IMG/VR virus record: IMGVR_UViG_3300049427_000004
Span: 1-64,000 of that record
Origin: a virus
Length of the DNA stretch: 64,000 bases
Strand: one strand, 5' to 3'
Position 1 is the stretch's first letter, and the number at the start of each line of letters is the position of its first letter. Below, in pieces: positions 15,346 through 61,935 of the stretch. The translations under genes and the position numbers were made by a program. The notes below the pieces were generated by a model. The model was not told where the DNA came from. It did not search any database and saw only the letters and a list, made by a program, of their open reading frames with translations.

Positions 15346-15546
15346 TTAACATTTATCGTCTGTGTTCTCAAAATTATATAATTTTCTGCCAGTTGGTTTT
15401 GATAGTTTATTTATAACCTCAGTATGTATTTCGATTTCTTCATCTGTAAAACTGCGCATCTCAGGAAAGAGATGTAAAGCATTACTACAATATTGAAAAT
15501 CTAATGCATTCCCACACGTTGGACAAATAATTTTGTTATCTCTGAT
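15346..15546 (-). CDS. 66-aa zinc-finger protein with probable ATC start
   Basis: The coding part IRDNKIICPTCGNALDFQYC has a CPTCG knuckle and a third Cys; the last residue is also Cys. GGAGG lies exactly 8 nt before an ATC codon. The only canonical codon further up is TTG, which lies in front of that ribosome site and cannot be reached from it. The gene is therefore read as starting at ATC. It lies tightly between two other small genes. Confidence 0.6.
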   Translation of the reverse strand: MRDNKIICPTCGNALDFQYCSNALHLFPEMRSFTDEEIEIHTEVINKLSKPTGRKLYNFENTDDKC

Positions 15547-15574
15547 ACTTATTCCCTCCAATAAACATCACATT

Positions 15575-15876
15575 TCATCGCAATTCTGAAAAATCAATTG
15601 ACCATACTGGAAAACTTCCTTTGGAATCTTTTTTGCAATAGGTGTAACATCCACCTTCTCCGTCATAGCCACAGTATTCAGGTACTTTGATAAAGTACTT
15701 CACTGTTCTTTCATCGATGTCTGAAATAGTAGGCGTCCTCAACCCACCATCCTCAAATCGATAATCATTTTCGCCAATACAAAGCTCTATGGTTTGCTCC
15801 TTGCTATACTTCTTCGCATGTGCAACAAACTCCGTATCATTCCCTCCACTAAAACTCATGTAATCAAATTTTGACA
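15575..15876 (-). CDS. 100-aa protein, function unknown
   Basis: The GTG start is preceded by AAAGGGAG at good spacing (product begins SKFDYMSFSGGNDTEFVAH). It has a Cys-rich patch near the C-terminus (PEYCGYDGEGGCYTYCKKDS). Longer in-frame extensions lack a ribosome site and read as the 5' neighbour's membrane segment. Confidence 0.6.
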
Positions 15877-15912
15877 CTCTCTCACTCCCTTTCTTTTTAA
15901 ATTGCATCGAAA

Positions 15913-16032
15913 TTAATGTTTCAATTGCTCTAGCATATTTGTATAAGTAACAAATCCAGCACAAAAGCAAAAGATTGCTATGGCTACAATGCTGCCTATT
16001 TTTTCAACTCTTGTTTTTGCTTTATAATTCAT
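15913..16032 (-). CDS. 39-aa single-pass membrane peptide
   Basis: Starting at ATG the frame gives a basic N-terminus (MNYKAKTRVEKIG) followed by a hydrophobic segment (SIVAIAIFCFCAGFVTY). No clear ribosome site precedes this ATG; a GTG eleven codons upstream would add a second hydrophobic stretch. It could be real but weakly expressed. Confidence 0.35.
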   Translation of the reverse strand: MNYKAKTRVEKIGSIVAIAIFCFCAGFVTYTNMLEQLKH

Positions 16033-16124
16033 TGTGGCAAACATAATGACGAAGATAATTAGCACTTCATAGCTGGCACTTCAATAGGAATATTCATACT
16101 TCACCTACACTTTAAAATGGGTTT

Positions 16125-16328
16125 CTATAAACTGTTCTTTAACAAACTCCGCATAAACCAATAAGCAGGCCAAGCAAACAATGCAATGAGCATTACGACG
16201 ATCATCTGATAATCAAATCCATTTTCCTTTGTCTCTTCAAAAACAAAATCTTTTATATAGAAAATCAACGACCAAGTCCCAGCAGCTAAGTATAAAATTC
16301 CTATGGCAGCCAATGAAGTTATAAGCAT
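16125..16328 (-). CDS. 67-aa membrane protein with two transmembrane segments
   Basis: The ATG follows GGGGGAGATAATAA. Two hydrophobic stretches (LITSLAAIGILYLAAGTWSL and MIVVMLIALFAWPAYWFM) flank a charged loop (KDFVFEETKENGFDY). It has no known domain, though holin-like topology is possible. Location among early replication genes argues against a lysis role. Confidence 0.6.
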   Translation of the reverse strand: MLITSLAAIGILYLAAGTWSLIFYIKDFVFEETKENGFDYQMIVVMLIALFAWPAYWFMRSLLKNSL

Positions 16329-16366
16329 TTATTATCTCCCCCTTCCCCATCAAATGGAGTTTTTAT

Positions 16367-16792
16367 TTACTCTTTCCAATTAATAAACATATCTTTTGGA
16401 AAATATCCTATCGGAGTATCATTTACATATCTGCTTCCCTCAAAAGCTTTTAATAGCTTCAGCATTTCTTGACCATCTCTTTGACTTAGATTGAAGAATT
16501 TCACTACATTATACTTACCTTCAACACATACGACTGCCCAACTCTGGCCTCTGTTGGAGAGAGTGTCTATATCACTCCCTAGAGAAACGACATTACTAAT
16601 CGTAGTGTGTAGCGCTTCAATTTTATAATCGTGATTATTTAATATTTGAGCATGTGATTGAGATTTAGTTTCGCAAGATGAAACTCGACTATTGCTATCA
16701 AATATGTATTTTTGAAAATCAATTTGCATCTTATCTAATTCCAAGAAGGTTCGAAGCATATTCTTAAGTTTTCGTTTTAACTTTTTTATCAT
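16367..16792 (-). CDS. 141-aa protein with basic N-terminus and coiled coil
   Basis: Strongly basic start (MIKKLKRKLKNMLRTFLELD), then a helical, coiled-coil-prone stretch (about 20-75), then a compact C-terminal part (GQSWAVVCVEGKYNVVKFFN ... MFINWKE). No recognised family. It may associate with nucleic acid or membrane through the basic helix. Confidence 0.6.
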   Translation of the reverse strand: MIKKLKRKLKNMLRTFLELDKMQIDFQKYIFDSNSRVSSCETKSQSHAQILNNHDYKIEALHTTISNVVSLGSDIDTLSNRGQSWAVVCVEGKYNVVKFFNLSQRDGQEMLKLLKAFEGSRYVNDTPIGYFPKDMFINWKE

Positions 16793-16826
16793 TTTCCAAT
16801 CATCGCCTCTCTATGTATGTCGCCTT

Positions 16827-17090
16827 TCATCGTCTTAAAAAACCATCACAGTACTGTCCAAGACCACACCATATATTGTGCTTATTACATTTACCACTTG
16901 GGTAACTCATCATGTTAGTTGTAAAGAACTCACAGATATCACAATCAATTTTCGATCTGACAGAATGAGATGTTAGTGATTTATTACAAGTATCGCAGTG
17001 AGGTTTATTGTCCTCGCCAAATATCTGATAAGGGATTTCTAAATCACAAGTTGGACATACAGCTAGACTAGTTGAATTTTTAAGCTCAAT
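16827..17090 (-). CDS. 87-aa multi-zinc-ribbon protein with ATT start
   Basis: An uninterrupted frame carries repeated Cys pairs: AVCPTCDLEIPYQ, KPHCDTCNKS, IDCDICEFF, then GKCNKHNIWCGLGQYCDGF. It probably binds two zincs. GGAGG lies 8 nt before ATT, and there is no ATG, GTG or TTG in frame between that site and the first Cys motif, so ATT is taken as the start. The frame is clearly coding: conserved Cys spacing, no stops, and it fills what would otherwise be a 380-bp gap. Confidence 0.7.
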   Translation of the reverse strand: MELKNSTSLAVCPTCDLEIPYQIFGEDNKPHCDTCNKSLTSHSVRSKIDCDICEFFTTNMMSYPSGKCNKHNIWCGLGQYCDGFLRR

Positions 17091-27522: not shown

Positions 27523-27759
27523 TTAATTAACTTTTTTCAAACCACCATGAACATTTAATACATGGCCATCAGGAACCTTATCTATAATATTAAATTGATT
27601 CATTACTTCTTCCTCTGACAACGCGAGCGACTTACCCAATACTTCTCCGTATTCCTCATCATAAAGCCAACTATGAATGCTATAGCCGAATGAAGAGTAT
27701 TCTACAGTTCCGTAATTTTTTGATAATTTATCTTGAACAATTGTACCGAGTGGGATAAT
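27523..27759 (-). CDS. 78-aa protein with probable ATT start
   Basis: The protein (IIPLGTIVQDKLSKNYGTVE ... VLNVHGGLKKVN) is beta-rich with an SH3/KOW-like appearance. GGAGG lies 8 nt before ATT. The only canonical codon nearby, GTG three codons upstream, is part of the ribosome site itself, so ATT is the more likely initiator. Confidence 0.55.
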   Translation of the reverse strand: MIPLGTIVQDKLSKNYGTVEYSSFGYSIHSWLYDEEYGEVLGKSLALSEEEVMNQFNIIDKVPDGHVLNVHGGLKKVN

Positions 27760-35950: not shown

Positions 35951-36379
35951 TTATACATTTAAAACTTTCCACTTGCTATCTCTGAGTGTTAAGTAAACCT
36001 TGTCACCGTGTAAGAAGGTTGTAACTGCTCTATTATGCTTTTTAAGTTTTATGTAGATAGAGCCACCATGAACCACAATGATTTCACCCATTCTGCAATA
36101 TGCACCTGAATTAACTTTGATTCCTAATTTAAGAAGAGCCTCGATTTGTATATGTATGTTTTCATTTAAGATACCGTGTTTCTCTAGAAATTCAATAGCC
36201 AATTTATCTTCTTCTTTTCGCTTATTTTCATAGAAATCACTATACATCTTTGATTGAACATCGTTTAACTTATTTTTCAGAACCCTCCCGTCTACAACAA
36301 ATGTGTGACCATCAATATGTAAATTAACCAAACATTGACTCTCATCAATACAATTCTCGCTAAACTCAATATTTTGTAT
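35951..36379 (-). CDS. 142-aa protein with probable ATA start
   Basis: GGAGG stands 8 nt before ATA, from which an open frame runs IQNIEFSENCIDESQCLVNL into the body of the protein (HIDGHTFVVDGRVLKNKLND). A TTG 16 codons inside has no ribosome site, and no ATG or GTG occurs between. The C-terminal part is beta-rich (VVHGGSIYIKLKKHNRAVTT). Function unknown. Confidence 0.6.
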   Translation of the reverse strand: MQNIEFSENCIDESQCLVNLHIDGHTFVVDGRVLKNKLNDVQSKMYSDFYENKRKEEDKLAIEFLEKHGILNENIHIQIEALLKLGIKVNSGAYCRMGEIIVVHGGSIYIKLKKHNRAVTTFLHGDKVYLTLRDSKWKVLNV

Positions 36380-43276: not shown

Positions 43277-44809
43277 TTACTTGTTAAAGCCGTTATTTTT
43301 CACCTTGGCATAACAAACTTCTTCCCAAACATTTAAATCAGAAATAACTCTAAAAACAATCTGCTCATCTTCGGAGCCTTCACGGTTTTTTGGTAAGAAG
43401 AGAATCAGATATTTCTTCTCTGGATCTAATTCAAATTCTTTTTTTTGCCATTTCCCATGAGAATCTTTTTCATAGTTAAAGCAAAAAACCTTGTTCTTCC
43501 CTTCGAATTCATCATCGAACATTAATCTTCCTGCCATTACAACAGCTGCTACTTCAACAATTTCCATGGATTTACCAATGCTGTCCAAGTCAAGATAACG
43601 AAACTCTTTACCTATTTTCATTTGAACTGTTGCTAGTGTTGCACAGTTGTAATTTTCGTCCTTAATACAATCATGCAAGTCTTGAGCTGAATTAGAGAAA
43701 GCCAGCCATCTATCTGTTTGTTGAGACAAGTCAGGTTTGAAGGTATCAAAATAAATATGAGCGTAACCAAGTGGTCTATGTAATTCGATATTACTAATAA
43801 CATCCTCGATGCGATACTTTTTTAGAACAACTAATTTAATAAAGTCAGGTTGGTTTTGTTTTAACCATTTAGCTGCTTTAACAAGTGTTTTTCTATGTTC
43901 AGGACTGTATTTTCCTTTATTAACTACATCTCTCGCTATTGGCTCTTTAAGTATTCTTGAAGCAACAGTAGCCAAAAGCCTTGCTTGCCAACGTTTTTTC
44001 CCTTCCTCGTTTACAAAGATAAGTGCCTTTTCAAAATCCAAATCATTATCAGGATCTAATGCCTTTACATTGTGATCAAAAATAGAAAGAACAAATTTTT
44101 CAGTTACGATACTACTTTTACCAACACCTGATGAGAGGACTAAATACATCAGGTTACCTAGTTTCTGACCATTAATCCTCTTGGTTAATCGTGGAGAATC
44201 GAACAGAGGCAAGCCAACTTCTTCCCCTTGATCAAGCTCATCAATCACTTCCTCTATATCTTCAGTAAGATTGTATATAATTACATCGCCTGAATTGATA
44301 TGAGAAAAGGATGTCTTAAACTTATGCTGACAGAAAGTGTGTAATTGTTTTAAGTTCATGTTCGCAAGTTTTTTAATAAATTCTGTGCTATGTATATTCA
44401 ACAAGTTTTCATCCTGTAATATCCGTAAGCTTTCATACTTTTGGACTTCACTAAAATGATAGTCATCATTACTACTGTCTTTAGTACATTCGTTCATTAG
44501 ATCCTGAATCGTTGCAAAGCCGCCAGATTCATCATAAAATTCGAAATATGATTTTTTATTTTGTTCCTTTGGCTTAGTTGTTAAGTATGAATAGACCGAT
44601 GTATCTTCAAAACTTCGGATGCTATTGTCGTACATCTCTTTACCGATATGATAATAAAAGTACCAGATAGGTTTCGTAAATGTGCCTTGCTCAATTTTAT
44701 GAGACTTGTATTTTGAATACAGATTAGGGTTTTTCCACAGGTTCCCTACAAACAAACTTTCGTGAACCTCAGATGGTAACACAAACTCATCAATATATTT
44801 CGTGCTAAT
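43277..44809 (-). CDS. Replicative DnaB-type helicase (SPbeta YorI-like), probable ATT start
   Basis: RecA-fold hexameric helicase. The N-terminal region runs STKYIDEFVLPSEVHESLFV, then VVLSSGVGKSSIVTEKFV-type Walker A near residue 228 (SGVGKSS), FVNEEGKKRWQARLLATVAS, Walker B in YIYFDTFKPD near 355, and a sensor region with KIGKEFRYLDLDSIGKS. It unwinds the fork for the polymerase and primase. AGGAG lies 7 nt before ATT; starting there adds nine residues that look like a normal helicase N-terminus. The first canonical codon is GTG nine codons inside, with no ribosome site. Confidence 0.88.
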   Translation of the reverse strand: MSTKYIDEFVLPSEVHESLFVGNLWKNPNLYSKYKSHKIEQGTFTKPIWYFYYHIGKEMYDNSIRSFEDTSVYSYLTTKPKEQNKKSYFEFYDESGGFATIQDLMNECTKDSSNDDYHFSEVQKYESLRILQDENLLNIHSTEFIKKLANMNLKQLHTFCQHKFKTSFSHINSGDVIIYNLTEDIEEVIDELDQGEEVGLPLFDSPRLTKRINGQKLGNLMYLVLSSGVGKSSIVTEKFVLSIFDHNVKALDPDNDLDFEKALIFVNEEGKKRWQARLLATVASRILKEPIARDVVNKGKYSPEHRKTLVKAAKWLKQNQPDFIKLVVLKKYRIEDVISNIELHRPLGYAHIYFDTFKPDLSQQTDRWLAFSNSAQDLHDCIKDENYNCATLATVQMKIGKEFRYLDLDSIGKSMEIVEVAAVVMAGRLMFDDEFEGKNKVFCFNYEKDSHGKWQKKEFELDPEKKYLILFLPKNREGSEDEQIVFRVISDLNVWEEVCYAKVKNNGFNK

Positions 44810-48553: not shown

Positions 48554-48564
48554 ATTTTCTCACC

Positions 48565-49987: not shown

Positions 49988-50047
49988 TTTGTATATCTCC
50001 TTTTTATTTTTTTGTTTTATAATCAATGAATTGATGATTTCGCCACC

Positions 50048-50326
50048 TTAAGCAAATAATTCATATTCTTCATCTCGCTCATCTTTTGTTTCATCGACGT
50101 ATTCTACATTTTTATTTTTATCCAGCCACTCTATATGAGCATCACACTGTTCAGGAGTTAAAAACTTCACTTCATCTAGACCGACAACAACCCAACCTTT
50201 ACCTGCACTCACTTTATACATGGATTTTTCTCTGTCGTATTCATGCAACTCACCAATTGTACTAGAGAAAAATCCAACCTCAACACTGACCAATTTACCT
50301 AAATAGTCATCATAATTATTAACTAT
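50048..50326 (-). CDS. 92-aa protein with probable ATA start
   Basis: The site AAGGAGGTGA is a perfect match to the 16S 3' end, and ATA follows GGAGG by 8 nt. The sole canonical codon (GTG) is inside that site. The product (IVNNYDDYLGKLVSVEVGFF, SSTIGELHEYDREKSMYKVS) is beta-rich with an acidic tail. It probably has an Sm/SH3-like fold; function unknown. Confidence 0.55.
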   Translation of the reverse strand: MVNNYDDYLGKLVSVEVGFFSSTIGELHEYDREKSMYKVSAGKGWVVVGLDEVKFLTPEQCDAHIEWLDKNKNVEYVDETKDERDEEYELFA

Positions 50327-50339
50327 ATTAATCACCTCC

Positions 50340-52293: not shown

Positions 52294-52334
52294 ATTGATT
52301 CCTCCGAATAAGAACATTTGTTTGCGTAATAGCT

Positions 52335-52365: not shown

Positions 52366-52446
52366 GAGAAATAATTTTACAGCTTCATTTATTTAAATAT
52401 ATATGTATTTTTAATTTTTTTGTTTATAAAATCATGCTTTCGTTGG

Positions 52447-52653: not shown

Positions 52654-52676
52654 AACTCGTCACCTCCTCATGAAAG

Positions 52677-52925
52677 CTATGTTTTATCATCTATAAGTCC
52701 TTCAATTTCAATTATGAAATCATCGGAATATTTTTCGAAAAATGATAATTCATATTTATATCTAGTCCTCTCCCAAAACGGGCATTTAATTACACCAGCA
52801 AAATATGTCCCTCTGTATTGGGCAGCTTCTTTGTTTTTACACCACCAAGTACCAATTCCGCCTTCGCAATGAAGACAATCATAACATGATTTCTTATTGT
52901 TATCTGCCTTGCCATTTACAATCAC
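52677..52925 (-). CDS. 82-aa Cys-rich protein, uncertain start
   Basis: SCYDCLHCEGGIGTWWCKNK then KCPFWERTR: at least five Cys near the N-terminus, probably a zinc site. The GTG used lies 18 nt from AGGGGG, so the real start may be an unusual codon a little upstream. C-terminal half is acidic and helical. Confidence 0.55.
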   Translation of the reverse strand: MIVNGKADNNKKSCYDCLHCEGGIGTWWCKNKEAAQYRGTYFAGVIKCPFWERTRYKYELSFFEKYSDDFIIEIEGLIDDKT

Positions 52926-52960
52926 TTTTTTAAACGTTTTCTTCCCCCTATTAAATTGTG

Positions 52961-53146
52961 CTAAATATATAATCTGTCTTCAGTTACCATATCAGATAAA
53001 CTAACTCCGTCAACCAACAATTTATCCAATAATGCTCTTGCTTCTTCAATGCGTAAGGATTTAGTCTCTTTGTTTTGTCGGTAAGTATATTTCTTCTGAA
53101 GGTTTTGCTTAGATTGGTTTAGAAATTCAGGTATATTATTCATCAT
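52961..53146 (-). CDS. 61-aa protein, function unknown
   Basis: MMNNIPEFLNQSKQNLQKKY, strongly helical and basic, ending DMVTEDRLYI. No family recognised. Confidence 0.5.
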   Translation of the reverse strand: MMNNIPEFLNQSKQNLQKKYTYRQNKETKSLRIEEARALLDKLLVDGVSLSDMVTEDRLYI

Positions 53147-53182
53147 TTCACCGACACTCCATCCTCATGAAACATTCATTTG

Positions 53183-53371
53183 CTACTTCCAACGATCAAT
53201 CCACTTATAGAAATCCATGATGTTGCAAATTCCTAAAATGTGTCCACCGTCTGGATTCTCAATGTACTTCAAGCTATCAGTTTTGAGTGAGATATCCTCG
53301 ATACGTCTGATTGAAATTCCATCTGTATATGATTCGCCAACTACTAAGTCAAATGGTTCTGTGTATGGCAT
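53183..53371 (-). CDS. 62-aa protein, function unknown
   Basis: MPYTEPFDLVVGESYTDGIS ... NIMDFYKWIDRWK. Beta-rich start, aromatic C-terminus. GGAAGGTG site. No family recognised. Confidence 0.5.
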   Translation of the reverse strand: MPYTEPFDLVVGESYTDGISIRRIEDISLKTDSLKYIENPDGGHILGICNIMDFYKWIDRWK

Positions 53372-53400
53372 TTTTTCACCTTCCTAATGAAACAGAGTTT

Positions 53401-53607
53401 TTAACCGATGTATTTGTGCCATAGCGCAGCAAATGTTTTTGACCATTTACCATTTTTAAATTCATATCCATCAATGTATATTTTATTATTAATTGTTGTA
53501 ATGCTGAAACCCATCATATTTTCATGAAACGGAATTATCTTATCACCAAACACAACAACTCTTTTGTGCTGATTAACAAAAACTGATCCATTAATAAAAG
53601 CACCCAC
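53401..53607 (-). CDS. 68-aa protein, function unknown
   Basis: GTG start 6 nt after GAGG: GAFINGSVFVNQHKRVVVFG, beta-rich with an aromatic C-terminus (KTFAALWHKYIG). A longer frame upstream overlaps the ribosome site. Confidence 0.5.
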   Translation of the reverse strand: MGAFINGSVFVNQHKRVVVFGDKIIPFHENMMGFSITTINNKIYIDGYEFKNGKWSKTFAALWHKYIG

Positions 53608-53644
53608 TTTACACCTCGATCCCAATTAATAAGTTTTTATGATC

Positions 53645-53905
53645 TCATTTTATCTCAAATGATATTGCTGCTGGCTTATTGCTCTCATACAGTTCCATGT
53701 GTTGCTCAACAAATTTATCCCATACTGTAGCCGTTAGTTCATATTGCCCATCTACTTCTTCTGCATCAGTAACAATACCAATCGCCTTGGAATTATCGTT
53801 AATATCTGCACTGAATCCAAAGCCCTTAACAGTTTTGTCTAGAACAGGAAGATTGATATAATCTCTCAGACTTCCATTTTTATTAACCTTCACTTTAATT
53901 ATCAT
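53645..53905 (-). CDS. 86-aa protein, function unknown
   Basis: ATG behind GAGGGAAG gives MIIKVKVNKNGSLRDYINLP, then beta strands and a helix (YELTATVWDKFVEQHMELYE). No family recognised. Confidence 0.55.
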   Translation of the reverse strand: MIIKVKVNKNGSLRDYINLPVLDKTVKGFGFSADINDNSKAIGIVTDAEEVDGQYELTATVWDKFVEQHMELYESNKPAAISFEIK

Positions 53906-53936
53906 GTACACTTCCCTCTCTACATGAAACCGATAT

Positions 53937-54587
53937 TTAATATGTTTTTATATATTTTCTTTTTATGTATTTTTTAACATCAAATCTTATCCATTGATAA
54001 ATTGCCAGATATCTTTCTCTAACAAAGAATGATTGGGTTTTATACCATTCGTTGAGTGTGTATTCTCCTTTTGAACTGTTACAACTATTACAAGCAGGAA
54101 TGCAATTTTTCAGGTCGTTCCTACCGTCAAAAACAACATGATCTCTATGTAAATCTTTATTCGTTTCTTTTTTATTTTCTTCCCAAGACTTGCCACAATA
54201 GGCACATCTGAAATTGAAGTACAATCTGCAATCATACCATTCTCTATCGGTTATCTTGTGTACCTTTGGCTTTCTATCTTTTGTATATTGTCTAGTCTTA
54301 TCTCTGTTGTTTTGCTGCCAATTTAAATATTTTCCACTTTTCCTGTGCTCTTCATTTGCTTTTTTATGTATAATTTTATGCCTTGGGTCTTTATTTCTTT
54401 TTGAATAAATCGTTTTCCATTTTTCAGGATTTCTCTCAATCCATTTAGATGCTTTCATGGCGGTACACTTCTTACATTCGGGATGATAATAGATATACTC
54501 GCCTTTAACTGTAGAATTTTTCTTGTAAGAATAAAAGTCTGATAATTTTTTGTGAGTGCCACAAACTGAACAATTTTTTGATTCTAT
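53937..54587 (-). CDS. HNH endonuclease with N-terminal zinc ribbon, ATA start
   Basis: Predicted nicking/homing-type HNH nuclease, 216 aa. Residues 5-45 form a zinc ribbon (NCSVCGTHKKLSDFYSYKKN ... PECKKCTAMKASKW). The HNH core follows: FRCAYCGKSWEENKKE, DLHRDHVVFDGRNDLKNCIP, ACNSCNSSKG. An in-frame TGA lies two codons before ATA, and no canonical start exists until an ATG 43 codons in, which would cut off the ribbon. The AAAGGAG site stands 9 nt before the ATA, so ATA is the best start. Free-standing HNH nucleases of this type spread in phage genomes. Confidence 0.85.
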   Translation of the reverse strand: MESKNCSVCGTHKKLSDFYSYKKNSTVKGEYIYYHPECKKCTAMKASKWIERNPEKWKTIYSKRNKDPRHKIIHKKANEEHRKSGKYLNWQQNNRDKTRQYTKDRKPKVHKITDREWYDCRLYFNFRCAYCGKSWEENKKETNKDLHRDHVVFDGRNDLKNCIPACNSCNSSKGEYTLNEWYKTQSFFVRERYLAIYQWIRFDVKKYIKRKYIKTY

Positions 54588-54675
54588 TTTTCATCTCTCC
54601 TTTCGTGATCCAATAATAGATTTATTTCAACTGAATCCTATCGTCGCATTTATTTATCAAATTGTTAAGTTGTTC

Positions 54676-54828
54676 TTAATAATTAGTACAATCCCTGTGC
54701 CAGACATCCAATTCTTCATGTGACATTTCAGTATCTGGGTTTTGAAAATATATAAACAAGTGACGTAACCTTCTTAAAGTTGTATCGATTTCAGTAAAAA
54801 ATTTTTCATCTGTGTTTACAGTGAACAT
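54676..54828 (-). CDS. 50-aa protein, function unknown
   Basis: MFTVNTDEKFFTEIDTTLRR ... SHEELDVWHRDCTNY behind GGGAGG. Helical, with WHRDC at the end. No family recognised. Confidence 0.6.
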   Translation of the reverse strand: MFTVNTDEKFFTEIDTTLRRLRHLFIYFQNPDTEMSHEELDVWHRDCTNY

Positions 54829-54867
54829 CGAACTTACCTCCCTTCTTTACCCCATTAAACACTTGAT

Positions 54868-55101
54868 TTATAGCCTTTCTGTCCACACAAATCGCTTACC
54901 TTTGCATTTTAATGCTTGTCGAATCCATGTCTCCGAATCTCTTCTAGAATAAATATTATGACTATTCTCAAAGATCGCTTCATCACCTTTTAAAATTTCT
55001 AAATCGAATAGATGTTCACTTACTGCTGGAGAATATCTACGATTTAAATTAATGATATAAGTAAGTCCTTTGACAACTATCTCTGATTTCCATCTATCCA
55101 T
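54868..55101 (-). CDS. 77-aa protein, function unknown
   Basis: MDRWKSEIVVKGLTYIINLN; beta-rich, with SRRDSETWIRQALKCKGKRF before the end. Strong AAAGGAGTG site. No family recognised. Confidence 0.55.
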   Translation of the reverse strand: MDRWKSEIVVKGLTYIINLNRRYSPAVSEHLFDLEILKGDEAIFENSHNIYSRRDSETWIRQALKCKGKRFVWTERL

Positions 55102-55131
55102 GCTCTCACTCCTTTTAAAGTTGTTGTTTCG

Positions 55132-55272
55132 TTACGAATGATACTTCTCTGTTGGTTCATTTAAAACCCATTCCAGAATGTCGATTTGAAGTCTGATTTC
55201 TTCCATATTAAATTTCTTCTGTAGCTCTTTAAGTTGAATCAGTTTTGTTTTAACTTGATCCGCAGTTCTCAT
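55132..55272 (-). CDS. 46-aa helical protein
   Basis: MRTADQVKTKLIQLKELQKK ... LQIDILEWVLNEPTEKYHS behind GAGGTG. A long helix; possible protein-protein adaptor. Function unknown. Confidence 0.6.
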   Translation of the reverse strand: MRTADQVKTKLIQLKELQKKFNMEEIRLQIDILEWVLNEPTEKYHS

Positions 55273-55303
55273 TACTTATTCACCTCATGAATTTATCTTC
55301 TCA

Positions 55304-55492
55304 TTAATAATCCATTTCGATTATTACTAATGCGTATGAATAAATATCCCCATCTTTTATAATCTGATTATATTTGATGTCAATCAATTTGAACTCATTT
55401 TCATTCTCATGGTTACTGAGAAATATGTTAATATCATCATGTATTCCTCTTCCATACTTGCTCACAAATTCCTTAGTCCTAATTCTTTTCAT
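55304..55492 (-). CDS. 62-aa protein, function unknown
   Basis: MKRIRTKEFVSKYGRGIHDD; basic helical start, then a beta hairpin (YSYALVIIEMDY). GAGAGAATG-type site. No family recognised. Confidence 0.5.
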   Translation of the reverse strand: MKRIRTKEFVSKYGRGIHDDINIFLSNHENENEFKLIDIKYNQIIKDGDIYSYALVIIEMDY

Positions 55493-55530
55493 ATCATTCT
55501 CTCCTTCATGAAATTAACCATTTATCGCCT

Positions 55531-55803
55531 CTAGTCTCTTACTAATTCAGATATTTCCCCTAGGTCTGCTCCATTCATAACTGCCTCTATTGCCATTATT
55601 AGTGCATCCCAATCATAATTTCGTTGAACGGTGTCAATAATTAAATCTTGGAACTCACTACCTTCTGTTTCGTCATATGCTTCATGAGTGTAACCCTTTT
55701 TTATAAGATAGTCTTCAAGTTCTTTAACCATTTGATTCGATTTTTGAGCGTGTTCTGTCATTTTGCGAATATGAATTCTCCATGATTCAGGTAGTTGTTT
55801 CAT
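55531..55803 (-). CDS. 90-aa acidic protein, function unknown
   Basis: MKQLPESWRIHIRKMTEHAQ, helical, with an acidic C-terminal half (DALIMAIEAVMNGADLGEIS). AGGAGG site. No family recognised. Confidence 0.55.
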   Translation of the reverse strand: MKQLPESWRIHIRKMTEHAQKSNQMVKELEDYLIKKGYTHEAYDETEGSEFQDLIIDTVQRNYDWDALIMAIEAVMNGADLGEISELVRD

Positions 55804-55814
55804 TTAATTATCCT

Positions 55815-55837
55815 CCTTATAAAACTAGTCTTTCATT
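55815..55837. repeat. Intergenic repeat element, example 4
   Basis: On the minus strand AATAAGGCAATGAAAGACTAGTTTTATAAGGAGG-type sequence: the GGCAATGAAA core, then TTTTAT directly before AAGGAGG. Same layout as the elements near 33.96, 47.43 and 61.97 kb. Confidence 0.6.
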
Positions 55838-56187
55838 GCCTTATTTTCATCCACTATAGCCTTAATTTTTCTTAGCTGTTCTAAAGTGTATTTTGATTTT
55901 CCATAACCACTGAATGCTGTCCTAATGTCTGAATGCAGATCGTTAGATTCATCTTCATCTAAGATGTCTTGTTTTGAAAGATACAAAGTCCAATCGGCAA
56001 TATAGCCACCCATTTCTTGACTAAGGTCTTCAATATGAAACTTCAGAGGCCTATATCCATTCCCAACTTCAAAGTACTTTCGTCCGACTTTTGAAATAGT
56101 TTCTTCTCTGATAAAGACTTCCTTTCGACCTCTGGCATTATTGCCCACTGCTTTTAAAAAAACCTGTTGCCCTACTTCAAGTTTCAT
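55825..56187 (-). CDS. 120-aa protein, function unknown
   Basis: MKLEVGQQVFLKAVGNNARG: an SH3-like beta barrel at the N-terminus (YFEVGNGYRPLKFHIEDLSQ), then a helical part with an arginine- and lysine-rich end (SKYTLEQLRKIKAIVDENKA). Related in design to small phage DNA-associated proteins, but not identified. Confidence 0.6.
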   Translation of the reverse strand: MKLEVGQQVFLKAVGNNARGRKEVFIREETISKVGRKYFEVGNGYRPLKFHIEDLSQEMGGYIADWTLYLSKQDILDEDESNDLHSDIRTAFSGYGKSKYTLEQLRKIKAIVDENKAMKD

Positions 56188-56291
56188 ATATGTTCACTCC
56201 CTCATAAAATAACCATTTCAAGACCTTTTTTCACCTATATATAGTTAATATTCATATTGATATAACTACATATAGTATGTCTTTTGTTTAT

Positions 56292-56492
56292 TTACTGCTT
56301 ATGTTCTTCTCTAAACTTTCTGATGCACTCCAGCAGCTGACTCTCTTCCATATTCCAAATTTCAGTTCGAGTTTTTCTATTGTTGTATATGAAAATATTG
56401 TCCATCAATTGACCGAATCTCATGTCAGGGAAGTCTCTCCAACACTCTTCAATTGCTTTAGTTACGGCATGAATCCGCTCAGGATCGCGCAT
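56292..56492 (-). CDS. 66-aa helical protein behind a strong promoter
   Basis: ATG 8 nt after GGAGG gives MRDPERIHAVTKAIEECWRD and DNIFIYNNRKTRTEIWNMEE. A DPxRI-x-x-V-x-x-I-E-x-x-W pattern is common in small phage proteins. Its promoter overlaps a 10-bp inverted repeat, so expression is likely regulated. Confidence 0.65.
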   Translation of the reverse strand: MRDPERIHAVTKAIEECWRDFPDMRFGQLMDNIFIYNNRKTRTEIWNMEESQLLECIRKFREEHKQ

Positions 56493-56516
56493 ATGTATTA
56501 CCTCCAAAAACTGAAT

Positions 56517-56555
56517 GTGCTACAATTTCCCTTATTCGTAAGTTCATTGTAGCAC
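56517..56555. promoter_or_regulatory. Operator-like inverted repeat over a -10 box
   Basis: GTGCTACAAT (56517-56526) and ATTGTAGCAC (56546-56555) form a perfect 10-bp inverted repeat with 19 bases between. The right arm contains the -10 box of the promoter. The spacing of about 29 bp between centres suits a dimeric or looping repressor, or an RNA hairpin. Confidence 0.65.
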
Positions 56556-56575
56556 ATCGCTGTTTATATGGTCAA
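56546..56575 (-). promoter_or_regulatory. Sigma-A promoter at 56.6 kb
   Basis: On the minus strand TTGACC (56570-56575) and TACAAT (56546-56551) are 18 nt apart. It lies between the Gam-like gene and the 66-aa gene and should transcribe leftward. Confidence 0.7.
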
Positions 56576-56607
56576 TAATTATGTATTTGTTTTTGATAAT
56601 TTATTTA

Positions 56608-57231
56608 TTATTCTTTGTTCAATGTCCAGTCACATTTCTCAGGACGTTCAATAAGTTGAATAAATTCTAATGGTTGACCAGCGTCATCCACATAAAACAG
56701 TTTACCATCAATATTAGTCTGTTTCAGAATTTTTTTGTAATCTCCCCATCTAACTTCTTCTTTAATGAAGTCAGGGCTGTTTTCTTTTACAAACTGTACA
56801 AAACTAGGATCGTCTTTAGCTTTGGATACTTCTTTACCGTTAACAAGAATCTCTGGCTGTTGTTTTTTGAACGTTAAGCTGCGAGTGGGTAATTTAATCG
56901 TAGAACTAATTTTCTTAGCTTTATTCGCTTTCTCCTCATCAATGACTCGCAGTTGATAAGCATGAAGGTGCTGTTTGAAAAACTCAATATCATTCACATG
57001 CTTTTTAGCAGCTGACTCTTTCCATAGATCCATCTTTGCTTTAAACGAATCCATACGCTCATTGTAAATTTGCTCAATTTCTTCTACTTTCTTTTCTTTC
57101 TCGACTAGGATTCCATCTACCCAAACAGCCATTCCATAATCATAAACTCCCCATGCTTGATCTTGTTGCAGTTGGTAAACCTCATCGTCCTCAAGTAGTG
57201 CTTCTTCAATTTGTTGATTGTAAGTTGTCAT
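56608..57231 (-). CDS. Gam-like host-nuclease inhibitor
   Basis: A 207-aa protein with a long central coiled coil (VEEIEQIYNERMDSFKAKMD), the SSTIKLPTRSLTFKKQQPEI strand typical of the Mu Gam family, and VRWGDYKKILKQTNIDGKLF near the C-terminus. Gam binds dsDNA ends and protects linear phage DNA from RecBCD/AddAB; it resembles Ku. An N-terminal extension (AWGVYDYGMAVWVDGILVEK) is unusual. It is not linked to a recombinase gene in view, but RecJ and UvrD-like proteins share the element. Confidence 0.78.
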   Translation of the reverse strand: MTTYNQQIEEALLEDDEVYQLQQDQAWGVYDYGMAVWVDGILVEKEKKVEEIEQIYNERMDSFKAKMDLWKESAAKKHVNDIEFFKQHLHAYQLRVIDEEKANKAKKISSTIKLPTRSLTFKKQQPEILVNGKEVSKAKDDPSFVQFVKENSPDFIKEEVRWGDYKKILKQTNIDGKLFYVDDAGQPLEFIQLIERPEKCDWTLNKE

Positions 57232-57278
57232 AATTTATTAATCTCCCTTTTTTTTGTTTTCATCATAATACTCTCGTT

Positions 57279-57512
57279 TCAAGACCTTTGCGATTCAATA
57301 AATTTCTTGATTTCTGTCAATTCTCTCATATTTCTTTTATAGAGCAGTGCAACGCACGCATCATGTATAGCATTAAGTTGTTCTTCAAAGTCTTTTCTTA
57401 GTGAAGAAGGACAGTCTAATTGATCTGGAGTAGCACAGTGAAATGCTTCTTCACTATCGGTACAACATGTTCCTTCATAATTCCAGTAGCATAAATCATT
57501 AGCGCAATTCAT
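57279..57512 (-). CDS. 77-aa Cys-rich protein
   Basis: MNCANDLCYWNYEGTCCTDS and HCATPDQLDCPSSL hold seven Cys residues in the first 35 positions. The rest is helical (NAIHDACVALLYKRNMRELT). Probable metal site; role unknown. Confidence 0.6.
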   Translation of the reverse strand: MNCANDLCYWNYEGTCCTDSEEAFHCATPDQLDCPSSLRKDFEEQLNAIHDACVALLYKRNMRELTEIKKFIESQRS

Positions 57513-57548
57513 TTATTTTCTCCCTTCGAAATTACAATTTTAAAAGCT

Positions 57549-57779
57549 CTATCTATTATCTTTCAGTGTAAAAGAATCGCATGTGTCTGCTTCCACTAGT
57601 GTGTTCAATGCAAACTTCAATTCTCCACAGTATGGGACAAATGTATTCTCGTTCCCTGTATTCCTGATTCTTACCCAAGTTGAGTGAATACAATCGGAAC
57701 ATTCTTTCTTTGCAGCTTCATCTGGAAAGTTCTTTGTAAACTCCTGCTGGAGTAATTCCCAATCACTTAACTCTTTCAT
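57549..57779 (-). CDS. 76-aa Cys-containing protein
   Basis: Has CSDCIHSTWVRIRNTGNENT, YCGELKF and ADTCDSF, four to five Cys spaced like a small zinc fold. AGGAG site. Adjacent to another Cys-rich gene. Confidence 0.55.
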   Translation of the reverse strand: MKELSDWELLQQEFTKNFPDEAAKKECSDCIHSTWVRIRNTGNENTFVPYCGELKFALNTLVEADTCDSFTLKDNR

Positions 57780-57806
57780 TTTACATCTCCTAATAAATTC
57801 ACGATT

Positions 57807-58115
57807 TTAAAGTAACTTTTCTTGTACTATTTCCCATGCTTTAACTCCATCTTCATATGCATTTGGATAATTTTGTGCGTAGAGGGAATTATCTCGTTTA
57901 ATTCCATCGAATCCAGCAGCAAAAGATTGAACGTAATTGTCGGTTAGTTCTTGTTCTAAATAATCTTCGACATAGCGTCCGTCTTCGCACATAAATTGAT
58001 AAACTGCACCCAAAGCACAAGCACATCCTTCCTTTGGAAAGAAATCTCCACGCATTGGTTTTAATCCTGTAGCCCTGTACGCTTCAATCACTAGCTCTGG
58101 ATAGACTTGTTTCAT
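57807..58115 (-). CDS. 102-aa protein, function unknown
   Basis: ATG (MKQVYPELVIEAYRATGLKP) follows AAAGGGAG. KEGCACALGAVYQFMCEDGR gives three Cys; the rest is helical (DGVKAWEIVQEKLL). A longer upstream frame overlaps the neighbouring gene. Confidence 0.6.
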   Translation of the reverse strand: MKQVYPELVIEAYRATGLKPMRGDFFPKEGCACALGAVYQFMCEDGRYVEDYLEQELTDNYVQSFAAGFDGIKRDNSLYAQNYPNAYEDGVKAWEIVQEKLL

Positions 58116-58143
58116 ATTTTCATCTCCCTTTGAATTTCTCATT

Positions 58144-58701
58144 TTATAGGCTTTTCGAAATAGCATTTTTACGTTTTATCAATTCCTCTATTTGACCATC
58201 AATGAAATTGATCTGTTCGAGAATATGTTCATTCTCATTGATGCCAATTTCTTTATTCCATTCTTCTTCTAGTCTCCAAAGGTCTCTTTCTAGACCTAAA
58301 AATGTTCCATGAGCTACATTTTTAGTTTTTGAAACATTAAATGAAGGGGTGTAAGAGTCGCAATGAATCCCACAGCAATTATGGATTGGATTATATTCTT
58401 TATCAGATGAGCTACAATCGCAATAACTACCACTCATATTATTACTTGATAATGAGATATGATAATTGAACCTATCTTGATTTGTGTCCATATAGTAAAT
58501 TGAGACAGTGCCATCACTATACCCTTCTGACTGATCAGGTTCATAATGAAAATAGCAGTCATTTGATTCATATGTATTAATTAATTCCTCTAATTTATCT
58601 ATGTTTTGCTCTATGGTGTAAAAATAAGGATACATATCTACCCTTTCATCTTTCTGAACTTTAATCATAAAAGACTTCAAGTGTGTTAAAAATTTAGTCA
58701 T
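58144..58701 (-). CDS. 185-aa protein, function unknown
   Basis: Helical N-terminus, then a Cys-containing middle (SYCDCSSSDKEYNPIHNCCG) and a C-terminal helix (ILEQINFIDGQIEELIKRKN). The C-x-C ... C-C-G-x-H pattern suggests a metal site. Starts ATG behind AGGAGAG. Confidence 0.6.
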   Translation of the reverse strand: MTKFLTHLKSFMIKVQKDERVDMYPYFYTIEQNIDKLEELINTYESNDCYFHYEPDQSEGYSDGTVSIYYMDTNQDRFNYHISLSSNNMSGSYCDCSSSDKEYNPIHNCCGIHCDSYTPSFNVSKTKNVAHGTFLGLERDLWRLEEEWNKEIGINENEHILEQINFIDGQIEELIKRKNAISKSL

Positions 58702-58988
58702 TCAATCTCTCCTTTGGAATGGAAATTTTTCTTTGCTCTTTCACTAGCTGCAATCCTATTCTTCTCGCTCATTACTCGTTTTTTACCTGATCTGAATGAA
58801 ACTTGACTAAAGTCCAACTCATACTTGTGTTGACCATCACTCAAAATCTCTATAGGCTCAACATTAACTCGCTTCAATTTATTGATAACTTTAGATTGAT
58901 AAGTACTTAATTTCCAAATTCCTGATTCATCGTCTGACTGGAGTACACTTTCACGCTCTGCTGCTGAATATGAAATAATAATCACCAT
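58698..58988 (-). CDS. 96-aa basic protein, start uncertain
   Basis: Body IISYSAAERESVLQSDDESG and a basic C-terminus (GKKRVMSEKNRIAASERAKK) that could contact nucleic acid. The listed ATG directly abuts its AAAGGA site; an in-frame ATT three to four codons later is at better spacing and may be the real start. Confidence 0.55.
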   Translation of the reverse strand: MVIIISYSAAERESVLQSDDESGIWKLSTYQSKVINKLKRVNVEPIEILSDGQHKYELDFSQVSFRSGKKRVMSEKNRIAASERAKKNFHSKGEIE

Positions 58989-59013
58989 TCCTTTGAAATG
59001 TCGTTTTTATGGC

Positions 59014-59181
59014 CTATTTGAAAGCCTTAAATCCTAATGTGAAACTCCAGTATAGGAAATTAATATATAGATAAACCTCTTTGTAATGCCCATAGTCCTC
59101 AGATGCTATATTTCCACCAAATGACCATCTATCAAAATTATGATCGCATCTTTGAAAATTAATGATTGGTTCAAATTTCAA
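59014..59181 (-). CDS. 55-aa aromatic protein, TTG start
   Basis: GGAGG lies 9 nt before TTG; product begins KFEPIINFQRCDHNFDRWSF and ends LYINFLYWSFTLGFKAFK. Contains an IINFQRCDHNFDRW stretch, which is rather conserved-looking. Function unknown. Confidence 0.55.
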   Translation of the reverse strand: MKFEPIINFQRCDHNFDRWSFGGNIASEDYGHYKEVYLYINFLYWSFTLGFKAFK

Positions 59182-59229
59182 CTCGTATTACCTCCATTTT
59201 TTATTTATTAAAACTACCTATTTTACGTC

Positions 59230-59295
59230 TTATTGTAAAATCTCTTTTTTCAAGCAGCTTAAACTCTCAGTTCGTTCCTTAGTTTCTCGATCCAA
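59230..59295 (-). CDS. Possible 21-aa peptide
   Basis: GAGGTG, then TTG and MDRETKERTESLSCLKKEIL-type residues to a stop. It is very short; the good ribosome site is the only support. Confidence 0.25.
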   Translation of the reverse strand: MDRETKERTESLSCLKKEILQ

Positions 59296-59433
59296 TTAGT
59301 CACCTCGTTTTATATTTTTGGTTTTAATGAATTTGAAGCACCATTTTCCGTTATCTTTGAGAAGTAATGATTTATCTCTTATGTATAGTCCTAATGCTAT
59401 GCAACTTATTCCCACCAAAGTCCAAGCAGCCAT
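59296..59433 (-). CDS. 45-aa membrane peptide
   Basis: MAAWTLVGISCIALGLYIRD followed by a basic tail (KWCFKFIKTKNIKRGD). Its ATG overlaps the stop of the previous gene (TAATG), so it is probably translated by coupling. Confidence 0.5.
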   Translation of the reverse strand: MAAWTLVGISCIALGLYIRDKSLLLKDNGKWCFKFIKTKNIKRGD

Positions 59434-59777
59434 TATGATACCTCGATTCCTTCAGCTTTCAGTAACAATTCACAAATGTTTTGAGATGTTGCTTCACTTA
59501 TATAATGCTTTCCATCATATAGCTTATCTAGCTTATCAATTAATTCAGGGTTAATTTCTTTTATAATATTGATCATTTTATAGCAGTCCTTAATATCTGT
59601 TGCCGGATTCCAAAAGTTAACTGGCTCAATGGCGATTCCTTGCTCATCCAACCAATATTCAGCAAAGTAAGGCAGTCCTCTATCATTGTTCTGAATTGTA
59701 GCTTTAGTCCATTTCATTAGCTTTTCACTTAATAAGTTATGAATTAACTTATAGTCGGTTTCCAATTCAATTGTCAT
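59433..59777 (-). CDS. 114-aa protein, start uncertain
   Basis: TIELETDYKLIHNLLSEKLM and FAEYWLDEQGIAIEPVNFWN. The listed ATG is fused to the AAGGAG site with no spacing; an ATT two codons later, or a TTG four codons later, is better placed. Helical C-terminus. Function unknown. Confidence 0.55.
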   Translation of the reverse strand: MTIELETDYKLIHNLLSEKLMKWTKATIQNNDRGLPYFAEYWLDEQGIAIEPVNFWNPATDIKDCYKMINIIKEINPELIDKLDKLYDGKHYISEATSQNICELLLKAEGIEVS

Positions 59778-59797
59778 CTCCTTATGAAAATGTGAAT

Positions 59798-60094
59798 TTA
59801 TTTAGATTTCACTACTTCTAATTCTGAAATTTCTCTTTTGTTTAATGGTAAAACATGCTGTTCATATACGTTTCCGATGTCGTAATCAAATCCATACCTT
59901 TCACCACACACTTTACACTCCATAAAGGTTTCTTGCCCTGTTCCATCGCTGTCATAGTGTTCAAGTGAACCATCATCATTTACGTAATATTGATGTACTA
60001 CGCCATCAACTATGTGTAGCACCAGCCTTATGTCTTCTTCATTATGTTCATGTAGTATTTTACACCTTTCATTTTGACACGAAAATTTACTCAT
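59798..60094 (-). CDS. 98-aa zinc-ribbon protein
   Basis: CQNERCKILHEHNEEDIRLV and CKVCGERYGFDYDIGNVYEQ supply two Cys pairs around a beta strand hairpin (VLHIVDGVVHQYYVNDDGSL). Probably a single zinc ribbon. Function unknown. Confidence 0.6.
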   Translation of the reverse strand: MSKFSCQNERCKILHEHNEEDIRLVLHIVDGVVHQYYVNDDGSLEHYDSDGTGQETFMECKVCGERYGFDYDIGNVYEQHVLPLNKREISELEVVKSK

Positions 60095-60242
60095 GATTCA
60101 CCTTACTTTCAATATTTATCTTACTATCAAAATATTCTTTTCCAGGGATTTCGTTAGAAGTGGCTTTACCACATTTTAAGCATCTGCTAATCGATCCTGA
60201 TTCAAATATGTCTTCGTTGCATATTATACATTTATCATTCAA
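60087..60242 (-). CDS. 51-aa zinc-ribbon protein, TTG start
   Basis: NDKCIICNEDIFESGSISRC then LKCGKATS: a CxxC...CxxCG ribbon in a tiny protein, with GAGGAAGTGG upstream. Its 3' end overlaps the next gene's ATG by 8 bases. Confidence 0.55.
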   Translation of the reverse strand: MNDKCIICNEDIFESGSISRCLKCGKATSNEIPGKEYFDSKINIESKVNHE

Positions 60243-60273
60243 TTAAATACCACTTCCTCATAAATGTTCTCTT

Positions 60274-60690
60274 TCATCGAGCACTTTTTAATTTTTCAAT
60301 CTTATTGACCACTGCTTGAATAGATTCTTCTGATTCACGTTTAATTTCATCTAATTCATTTTCCAATTCTTTAATCTGTTTTGCGAAATGGAAATCAGGA
60401 TCAATTGTTACTGTATAGTATTTTTCATTTTCTGGTTTGATTTCTGCAAGAAATTCCAAGTTAGTAGCTCCATATTTAATTTGATTGAAATTTCCAAAAA
60501 GATAAGAATGACTGCTTATATTCTCTTGTTTTCGATCAATAGTTAGAGATGGCTGCTGCATAAAGGGAACGTCTATCGTACAAGGCTCACCGTTCCACAG
60601 TCCTCTAGCCTTAAGCGTGAAACCTTTTCCATCAACTCTTTTAGTGATATGTATTTCTTCAAATCCTACTCCACTATTATCTATGTTCAT
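60274..60690 (-). CDS. 138-aa protein, function unknown
   Basis: Beta-rich first 95 residues (FEEIHITKRVDGKGFTLKAR, FTIDVPFMQQPSLTI-like) and a C-terminal coiled coil (QIKELENELDEIKRESEESI). AAGGGAG site. May oligomerise; no family recognised. Confidence 0.6.
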   Translation of the reverse strand: MNIDNSGVGFEEIHITKRVDGKGFTLKARGLWNGEPCTIDVPFMQQPSLTIDRKQENISSHSYLFGNFNQIKYGATNLEFLAEIKPENEKYYTVTIDPDFHFAKQIKELENELDEIKRESEESIQAVVNKIEKLKSAR

Positions 60691-60718
60691 ATGTCATTCT
60701 CCCTTTAAATTCCATCAT

Positions 60719-61000
60719 TTATTTGATACTGTAAAGACTTAATAATTCATATTTAGTTTTAATCTGCATCTCATTTTTCCCTGCTCTATTCCAACTAAGA
60801 GCATCTTCCTCGCTCATTCTATTTCCTTCGCCATTATCCCATTCATGCAATCGTTGTTCTCCGTATTCCCTTTTGTACCATTCGCGATATGCTTCTAATG
60901 GCAAGGCATATGTAATCGGTGCATCAATTACACTTGACCAATGTAAATACAAATCTTCTTTAGTAACATCATCTTTTAAAACAAGTGTATATCTAGGCAT
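60719..61000 (-). CDS. 93-aa protein, function unknown
   Basis: MPRYTLVLKDDVTKEDLYLH ... NRMSEEDALSWNRAGKNEMQ. Alpha/beta with many aromatic residues. No family recognised. Confidence 0.55.
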   Translation of the reverse strand: MPRYTLVLKDDVTKEDLYLHWSSVIDAPITYALPLEAYREWYKREYGEQRLHEWDNGEGNRMSEEDALSWNRAGKNEMQIKTKYELLSLYSIK

Positions 61001-61044
61001 TTCCTCTTCTCCTTCCTGCCCAATGAATCCCGTATTTCTTCGGG

Positions 61045-61362
61045 TTAAATTTCCTCAGAATCAATTTCTATTTCGTCATTCTCACTTACCACTATAAGAT
61101 TTATTCCTTTTTCAATATATTGTGACCCTGACTCAGTGAAGCATGGCATTTTTCCATTTTGCATGACGTATCCATATCCTTCATAGAAATCATGACCATA
61201 ATGTGCTCTATTCCATGCAATATTTGCAGCATGGTCTTTTAGCGTTTTTAAATTTGTGAAATCCTCACGATAATCTTGCATCCACTTTTCATTTATTACA
61301 TTTTCATCAATTTCTATAATGTACTCATTAGTAGTAGTTACCACGCATTTAAAATTTTTCAT
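61045..61362 (-). CDS. 105-aa protein, function unknown
   Basis: MKNFKCVVTTTNEYIIEIDE ... HAANIAWNRAHYGHDFYEGY ... VVSENDEIEIDSEEI. Beta-rich start, then a His/Tyr-rich stretch. ATG overlaps the previous gene's stop region (coupling). Confidence 0.55.
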   Translation of the reverse strand: MKNFKCVVTTTNEYIIEIDENVINEKWMQDYREDFTNLKTLKDHAANIAWNRAHYGHDFYEGYGYVMQNGKMPCFTESGSQYIEKGINLIVVSENDEIEIDSEEI

Positions 61363-61540
61363 TTAATCCTCCTGATATTTTCTTCTTTAAATCTTTACTC
61401 ATATCCTCAAAATAGTACCGTTGGTAATGAGAGTGGATTGTAATAATATCTTTCAACAATAATTCCTTCTTCATTTCGTCTGGTTCATTTAAGTAATCCT
61501 CACGTATTCTATCTAACATCTCTTGAGCAGTGATGGTCAA
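61349..61540 (-). CDS. 63-aa helical protein, TTG start
   Basis: TITAQEMLDRIREDYLNEPD behind GGAG. Helical, charged, with a basic C-terminus (KDLKKKISGGLNEKF). Function unknown. Confidence 0.5.
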   Translation of the reverse strand: MTITAQEMLDRIREDYLNEPDEMKKELLLKDIITIHSHYQRYYFEDMSKDLKKKISGGLNEKF

Positions 61541-61581
61541 TTTACCACTCCATTCTCCCTATAAATTCTTCATTTTATCTT

Positions 61582-61935
61582 CTAAATCTCCACAATCTTA
61601 ATTGCTTTTCCTTCAAATTTCATAATAAGAGAAACGGCATCCTCATTTCCAACCATATAGCAGCCGTCATATGCATCATATCGCACCACATTATCATCGG
61701 GATACTCTGGTTCTGTAGGCCATTCATCGTTATGTGATTTGCACTCACAAACTTCATTTTCTGTCTCATTAATAAAATCATAGTGACCGTGAGGAATATG
61801 GTATAATGTACTTTCTGTTGGATTACTGGCATTCATTCCAACAATAGTTCCATCAACAAGAATTCCACAAACATCAATTAATCTGCCTGATGGTAAACCA
61901 GATTGAGGTATAGTTACTTTTACTTGCTTGCTGAT
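61582..61935 (-). CDS. 117-aa protein with probable ATC start
   Basis: An open frame starts SKQVKVTIPQSGLPSGRLID followed by VCGILVDGTIVGMNASN, then the acidic half ending AVSLIMKFEGKAIKIVEI. GGAG is 8 nt before ATC. The first ATG is 33 codons in, after clearly coding sequence, and has no ribosome site. No ATG, GTG or TTG exists earlier. ATC is therefore taken as start. Function unknown; the N-terminal beta part looks like a small barrel. Confidence 0.6.
   Translation of the reverse strand: MSKQVKVTIPQSGLPSGRLIDVCGILVDGTIVGMNASNPTESTLYHIPHGHYDFINETENEVCECKSHNDEWPTEPEYPDDNVVRYDAYDGCYMVGNEDAVSLIMKFEGKAIKIVEI

What the first reader, a model, noticed from the sequence alone, without database searches (positions are those of the whole stretch)
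15346..61935. Systematic use of AUU, AUA and AUC as start codons in a phage genome
At nine genes a strong Shine-Dalgarno sequence is followed 6-9 nt (usually 8 nt after GGAGG) by ATT, ATA or ATC, with no usable ATG, GTG or TTG: 15546 ATC, 17090 ATT, 27759 ATT, 36379 ATA, 41952 ATA, 44809 ATT (replicative helicase), 50326 ATA, 54587 ATA (HNH nuclease) and 61935 ATC. The best case is 54587: an in-frame TGA lies two codons upstream and the conserved zinc ribbon starts four codons downstream. Two more genes (58988, 59777) may do the same. In bacteria such starts are rare and rejected by IF3 (infC is the classic exception). Nine in about 58 kb suggests that infection relaxes start selection, or that these genes are deliberately weak or switched on when IF3 function changes.
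Basis: partly seen in the sequence, partly recalled or inferred. Interest (0 to 1): 0.85.

Follow-up and report, generated by a model that had tools for sequence, protein, structure and literature searches.

The report
Weak AUU/AUA/AUC start codons, conserved
A large SPbeta-like Paenibacillus phage starts a few of its genes, including its DNA helicase and portal protein, at AUU, AUA or AUC instead of AUG, and its relatives keep the same weak starts, which suggests they are used to hold those proteins at low levels.

Summary
The core observation holds. The window is part of a 178.9-kb virus record related to SPbeta; its closest relatives are Paenibacillus prophages. All nine SD+ATH sites exist (ATH = ATT, ATA or ATC). 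Sites 15546, 17090 and 61935 are plausible but unverified; 41952 is doubtful.

Homologues confirm four of the six. The DnaB-like helicase starts with ATT, ATA or ATC at the same column in 20 of 46 scored rows; the other 26 have ATG or TTG. On a tree the class changes only 3 times, while the third base changed at least 5 times among T, A and C. The HNH nuclease is ATA in a 62% homologue; the portal gene outside the window is ATT, ATC or ATA in different phages. Decoy tests give 55 ATH picks against about 17 expected in related phages, with no excess in host DNA.

Most likely these are SD-dependent weak starts that tune low-copy proteins. A phage-induced relaxation of IF3 is not supported. SPbeta's GenBank record already assigns ATT or CTG starts to 9 of 185 genes, so this is a new variant of a known kind.

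The parts
43277..44809 (-). DnaB-like replicative helicase gene starting at ATT 44809; SD AGAGGAG just upstream
   Evidence: Start column is ATT/ATA/ATC in 20 of 46 scored rows, ATG/TTG in the rest; in-frame stop 5 codons upstream with no canonical start between; phrog_19
53937..54587 (-). HNH endonuclease (endonuclease VII-like) gene starting at ATA 54587; SD GAAAGGAG
   Evidence: 62% homologue L138 has ATA at the same column, Goe12 GTG; SPbeta yoqL (38%) is annotated with ATT; PF01844, phrog_1035
27523..27759 (-). 78-aa gene starting at ATT 27759; SD AGGGAGGTGATT (-23 kcal/mol)
   Evidence: Homologue in the G040 prophage also ATT with SD at the same column; G002 homologue ATG
58698..58976 (-). 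92-aa gene (phrog_1709) starting at ATT 58976, not at 58988
   Evidence: Aligns with ATG/TTG/ATG/GTG starts of homologues in G065, G003, G002 and G005
50048..50326 (-). 92-aa gene starting at ATA 50326; SD AAGGAGGTGATT (-23 kcal/mol), coding score high
   Evidence: no homologue found
35951..36379 (-). 142-aa gene starting at ATA 36379; SD AGGAGG (-13 kcal/mol)
   Evidence: no homologue found
61582..61935 (-). 117-aa gene, possible ATC start at 61935 (unverified; modest SD GGAG)
   Evidence: only ATH candidates precede ATG 61836, and the coding signal extends upstream of it
15346..15546 (-). 66-aa gene, possible ATC start at 15546 (unverified; TTG 15561 competes)
16827..17090 (-). 87-aa Cys-rich frame, possible ATT start at 17090 (unverified; strong SD, no coding signal)
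7684..11649 (-). Long gene (about 1322 aa), probable CTG start at 11649 (SD GGGAAGGAG, -16)

Best explanation
A small subset of genes in SPbeta-like phages of Paenibacillus is translated from near-cognate start codons (AUU, AUA, AUC, also CUG) placed 6-9 nt after a good Shine-Dalgarno sequence. The SD docks the 30S subunit, fMet-tRNA pairs with two of the three codon bases, IF3 rejects many of these complexes, and the output is a low, fixed fraction of that of an AUG start. Selection keeps this weak start in genes whose products are needed in small numbers, such as the hexameric helicase and the portal protein, and perhaps the HNH nuclease. Shown here: the position, SD spacing and class-level conservation of these starts. 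Inferred: use of fMet-tRNA, the IF3 step, the low yield and its benefit.
For: Helicase start column: ATT/ATA/ATC in many lineages, 3 class changes on the tree against a shuffled mean of about 15, and at least 5 changes among the three ATH codons. Within the two starred clades that hold nearly all ATH rows, only one ATG row (L181), one TTG branch and three ambiguous rows occur. Portal: ATT in this record and in a 70% homologue, ATC and ATA in others, GTG/ATG/TTG in the rest. HNH: ATA and ATA, GTG in Goe12, annotated ATT in SPbeta yoqL. YomF family: CTG in SPbeta, Goe12 and G003, ATT in G002. Decoy-controlled excess: 55 ATH against about 17 expected in 1597 phage genes (p = 3e-15); host 7 against 5.2. 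Start positions predicted from homologues: about 22 AUH/CUG of 585 phage genes against 0 of 135 host genes. AUU/AUA starts with extended SD give about 10% of AUG expression in S. aureus (PMC13009471).
Against: No expression or N-terminal data. Several families flip between near-cognate and canonical starts (58976, 129988, G002 61330), which fits tolerance rather than selection. SDs of near-cognate genes are only slightly stronger than those of ATG genes (median -12.0 against -11.6, p = 0.046). Seven of the about 22 homology-predicted cases are the same helicase family. Two window genes have no homologues.
Confidence: 0.62

Rival explanations
1. Tolerated drift: in these AT-rich phages a good SD makes the third base of the start codon less constrained, so ATH starts come and go without a function.
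For: Many families switch between ATH and ATG/GTG/TTG. CTG is used as well.
Against: About 95% of genes keep canonical starts, so the base is not free in general. In the helicase the ATH class is deep and clustered (3 changes).
Confidence: 0.22
2. A host translation trait relaxes start selection: most Paenibacillaceae carry a second, divergent IF3, and phages of these hosts exploit it.
For: 95 of 105 family genomes have two IF3 C-domain matches. The paralogue lacks most of the RFRGRE motif of canonical IF3. The unrelated P. larvae phage Tripp has convincing CTG starts for portal and RuvC.
Against: No excess of ATH or CTG starts in Paenibacillus chromosomal genes. SPbeta in B. subtilis, which to my knowledge has only infC, also has annotated ATT/CTG starts.
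Confidence: 0.08
3. IF3-sensing regulation as in infC: the AUH genes rise or fall together when IF3 activity changes, for example after induction.
For: The codon class is the one IF3 discriminates against (established for infC); host infC genes show ATT/ATC starts after a strong SD.
Against: No IF3-like protein found in the phages; the genes are functionally mixed and also occur with ATG or TTG in relatives.
Confidence: 0.05
4. Artefact: the genes start at other, canonical codons, or the sequence has errors at the start codons.
For: 15546, 41952 and 59777 have canonical alternatives.
Against: The same class of codon stands at the same column after an SD in independent assemblies; in the helicase conserved N-terminal residues precede the next canonical codon, and in-frame stops lie just upstream.
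Confidence: 0.03

Closest known systems
SPbeta (SPBc2, NC_001884) annotated starts
   Same: Related phage; its GenBank record assigns ATT to 6 and CTG to 3 of 185 genes, e.g. yomF CTG and yoqL (homologue of the window's HNH) ATT
   Different: Its helicase yorI and portal yonE are not among those nine; ATA/ATC are not annotated, though yoqJ probably starts at ATA 88434; I found no published analysis of their conservation
infC (IF3) AUU/AUC/AUA start codon
   Same: AUH codon after a strong SD; present in the Paenibacillus hosts
   Different: infC uses it for autoregulation by its own product; these phage genes do not encode IF3
S. aureus/B. subtilis ccpN (AUA) and S. aureus cvfC1 (AUU) (PMC13009471)
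   Same: Conserved AUA/AUU start with extended SD; reporter expression about 10% of AUG in poor medium (up to 30% for ccpN in rich medium)
   Different: Single host genes; here a few percent of the genes of a phage group, with interchange of the three AUH codons
E. coli pcnB AUU start (cited in PMC13009471)
   Same: Weak start limits expression of one protein
   Different: Single bacterial gene

Membership tests
Near-cognate (AUH) starts that limit translation, as in infC, pcnB, ccpN | AUU/AUA/AUC at normal spacing after an SD, no usable canonical start | tested here: met
   for six window genes
Near-cognate (AUH) starts that limit translation, as in infC, pcnB, ccpN | Start position conserved in homologues | tested here: met
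   Helicase, HNH, 27759, 58976, portal; could not be tested for 36379 and 50326 (no homologues)
Near-cognate (AUH) starts that limit translation, as in infC, pcnB, ccpN | Lower expression than the AUG version | not testable with these tools
   Needs reporter fusions
IF3-autoregulated start (infC type) | Gene product is IF3 | tested here: not met
   No IF3 match in the record or by own profile in related phages
SPbeta-like phage | SPbeta-type replicative helicase and portal genes | tested here: met
   Helicase 53-54% to Goe12; portal 25% to YonE
SPbeta-like phage | Arbitrium genes, attachment site and gene order of SPbeta | not tested
   -

The most novel reading that the evidence does not exclude
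The AUH/CUG genes form a translationally co-regulated set in Paenibacillus phages whose output is set by the balance of canonical IF3 and the divergent IF3 paralogue of the host, so that helicase and portal synthesis report the state of the host's initiation machinery.
Probability: 0.08. Interest if true: 0.88.

Novelty: new variant of a known kind. Interest (0 to 1): 0.62.

Why it matters
Common gene finders use only ATG, GTG and TTG (my knowledge), so conserved replication and head genes of these phages would be truncated or given wrong starts. The helicase keeps a weak start class across many lineages, which makes the old question of whether AUH starts are selected for low output directly testable in SPbeta-like phages of laboratory B. 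subtilis.

Tried and rejected
Phage-coded IF3: a PF00707 search of the record and a custom IF3 profile on six-frame translations of the phages gave nothing. Phage-coded initiator tRNA: the one tRNA (CAT, 71512-71589) has a fully paired acceptor stem and no GGG/CCC anticodon stem, so it is an elongator, probably tRNA-Ile2 or Met. First SD counts without homology were confounded by neighbouring codons, so decoy and homology tests replaced them. Translational coupling: 48% of near-cognate and 35% of canonical starts lie within 30 nt of the upstream gene (not decisive). Homologue searches for 50326 and 36379 in 105 Paenibacillaceae genomes found nothing. Control phages FADO and BcoS-136 showed no excess. 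Paper searches found no report of conserved AUH starts in phages; the library lacks most subscription papers, so the original SPbeta genome paper was not consulted.

Full report
What the window is. The window is bases 1-64000 of a 178,866-base virus record. Its bases 40000-60000 have no close DNA match among 50,697 annotated phages. Its replicative helicase is 53-54% identical to that of the SPbeta-like phages Goe11, Goe12 and Goe14, and 75-77% identical to helicases of prophages in Paenibacillus oleatilyticus, P. pini, P. radicibacter and a Paenibacillaceae bacterium. The host is therefore probably a Paenibacillus relative, not Bacillus.

The observation. All nine sites are in the sequence as described. 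I scored every gene of the record by coding signal and anti-SD pairing without regard to the start codon. Of 278 genes, 230 have a canonical start with a good SD. In a test where every non-canonical codon competes on equal terms, the window gives 6 ATH picks against 1.2 expected (p = 0.0006) and the whole record 12 against 2.5 (p = 1.7e-6). The six are 27759, 36379, 44809, 50326, 54587 and 58976. Sites 15546, 17090 and 61935 remain plausible but unverified, 41952 is doubtful, and 59777 is undecided.

Helicase. The start in the window is AGAGGAG-TGGTCAT-ATT. The closest relatives have ATT (four more) or ATA after an SD at the same column, Goe12 has ATG and G063/G065 have TTG. A profile search of IMG/VR gave 43 loci. 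With loci already held they make 46 rows with a clear start on the tree: 20 ATH (ATA 10, ATT 7, ATC 3) and 26 ATG or TTG. Three further rows (L166, L167, L175) are ambiguous because their SD is weak. On the tree the ATH/canonical label needs only 3 changes, against a shuffled mean of about 15, while the three ATH codons interchange at least 5 times. One more genome locus, L182, has ATA. I read this as a class-level trait of this gene. Near-identical rows are included, so row counts are not counts of independent events.

Portal, HNH and others. Outside the window, at 132652, the portal gene (phrog_2739) starts at ATT after GGAAAGGAGGT. Homologues have ATT (70% identity), ATC (63%) and ATA (56%), others GTG, ATG or TTG. 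The HNH gene at 54587 is ATA in the window and ATA in a 62% homologue, GTG in Goe12, and its SPbeta relative yoqL is annotated with ATT. The 27759 gene is ATT in the G040 prophage and ATG in G002. The 58976, 129988 and 143439 genes are ATH here and ATG, GTG or TTG in relatives. The YomF family has CTG in SPbeta, Goe12 and G003 and ATT in G002, so CTG belongs to the set.

Is it special to these phages? Using start positions predicted from homologues with confident canonical starts, 556 phage genes are canonical and 29 are not. On inspection about 22 of the 29 are AUH or CUG, some of them printed one codon off, and seven of these are the helicase. Host genes gave 132 canonical and no AUH or CUG; SPbeta with Goe12 gave 181 canonical and one ATA. 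The decoy test gives 55 ATH against about 17 expected in 1597 phage genes (p = 3e-15), 8 against 3.4 in SPbeta and Goe12 (p = 0.02), 7 against 5.2 in host DNA (p = 0.27), and 0 in stretches of the Bacillus phages FADO and BcoS-136. The unrelated P. larvae phage Tripp has convincing CTG starts: its portal and its RuvC match their families well upstream of the annotated starts.

Mechanism. The codons used keep two of three pairs with the initiator anticodon and follow a normal or strong SD at 6-9 nt. In S. aureus, AUU and AUA starts with extended SDs give about 10% of AUG output, and the ccpN AUA start is conserved between S. aureus and B. subtilis (PMC13009471). The simplest account is a weak start that sets low expression. 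That selection maintains it is an inference from the helicase and portal; other families look like drift. I found no IF3 homologue in the record or in the related phages, so a phage-driven relaxation has no support. Most Paenibacillaceae genomes (95 of 105) carry a second, divergent IF3. It is a lead, not an explanation, because host genes show no excess of such starts.

Known or new. SPbeta's own record already annotates 6 ATT and 3 CTG starts among 185 genes. What is new here is the Paenibacillus phage data, the use of ATA and ATC, and the deep class-level conservation at the helicase and portal genes. I found no paper describing it in the open library.

Noticed in passing
L040, L041, L042, L043 (Paenibacillaceae chromosomes): A second, divergent IF3 gene occurs in 95 of 105 Paenibacillaceae genomes searched; the four read here keep at most one arginine of the RFRGRE motif. 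I found no paper on it.
   Followed up: partly
L241:43689-44222 and L241:3131-4639 (P. larvae phage Tripp): RuvC resolvase and portal appear truncated in the annotation: reading from CTG codons after GGAGGTGA adds 101 and 42 N-terminal residues, and the longer proteins match RuvC (phrog_159) and portal families over the added part.
   Followed up: partly
L131:38434-39105 (SPbeta yoqJ): SPbeta yoqJ probably starts at ATA 88434, 52 codons before the annotated ATG; a P. pini prophage homologue has ATG at that column.
   Followed up: partly
L001:7712-7789 (record position 71512-71589): The record's only tRNA gene has a CAT anticodon with an elongator-type body, probably an AUA-reading tRNA-Ile2; the first relatives scanned also showed a tRNA-Leu and a second tRNA-CAT.
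   Followed up: partly
window 11649: A gene of about 1322 aa probably starts at CTG 11649 rather than GTG 11658, judged by SD spacing.
   Followed up: partly
SPbeta record NC_001884, 120481: bnrdI is annotated with an ATT start that has no good SD; this one may be a mis-annotation.
   Followed up: no
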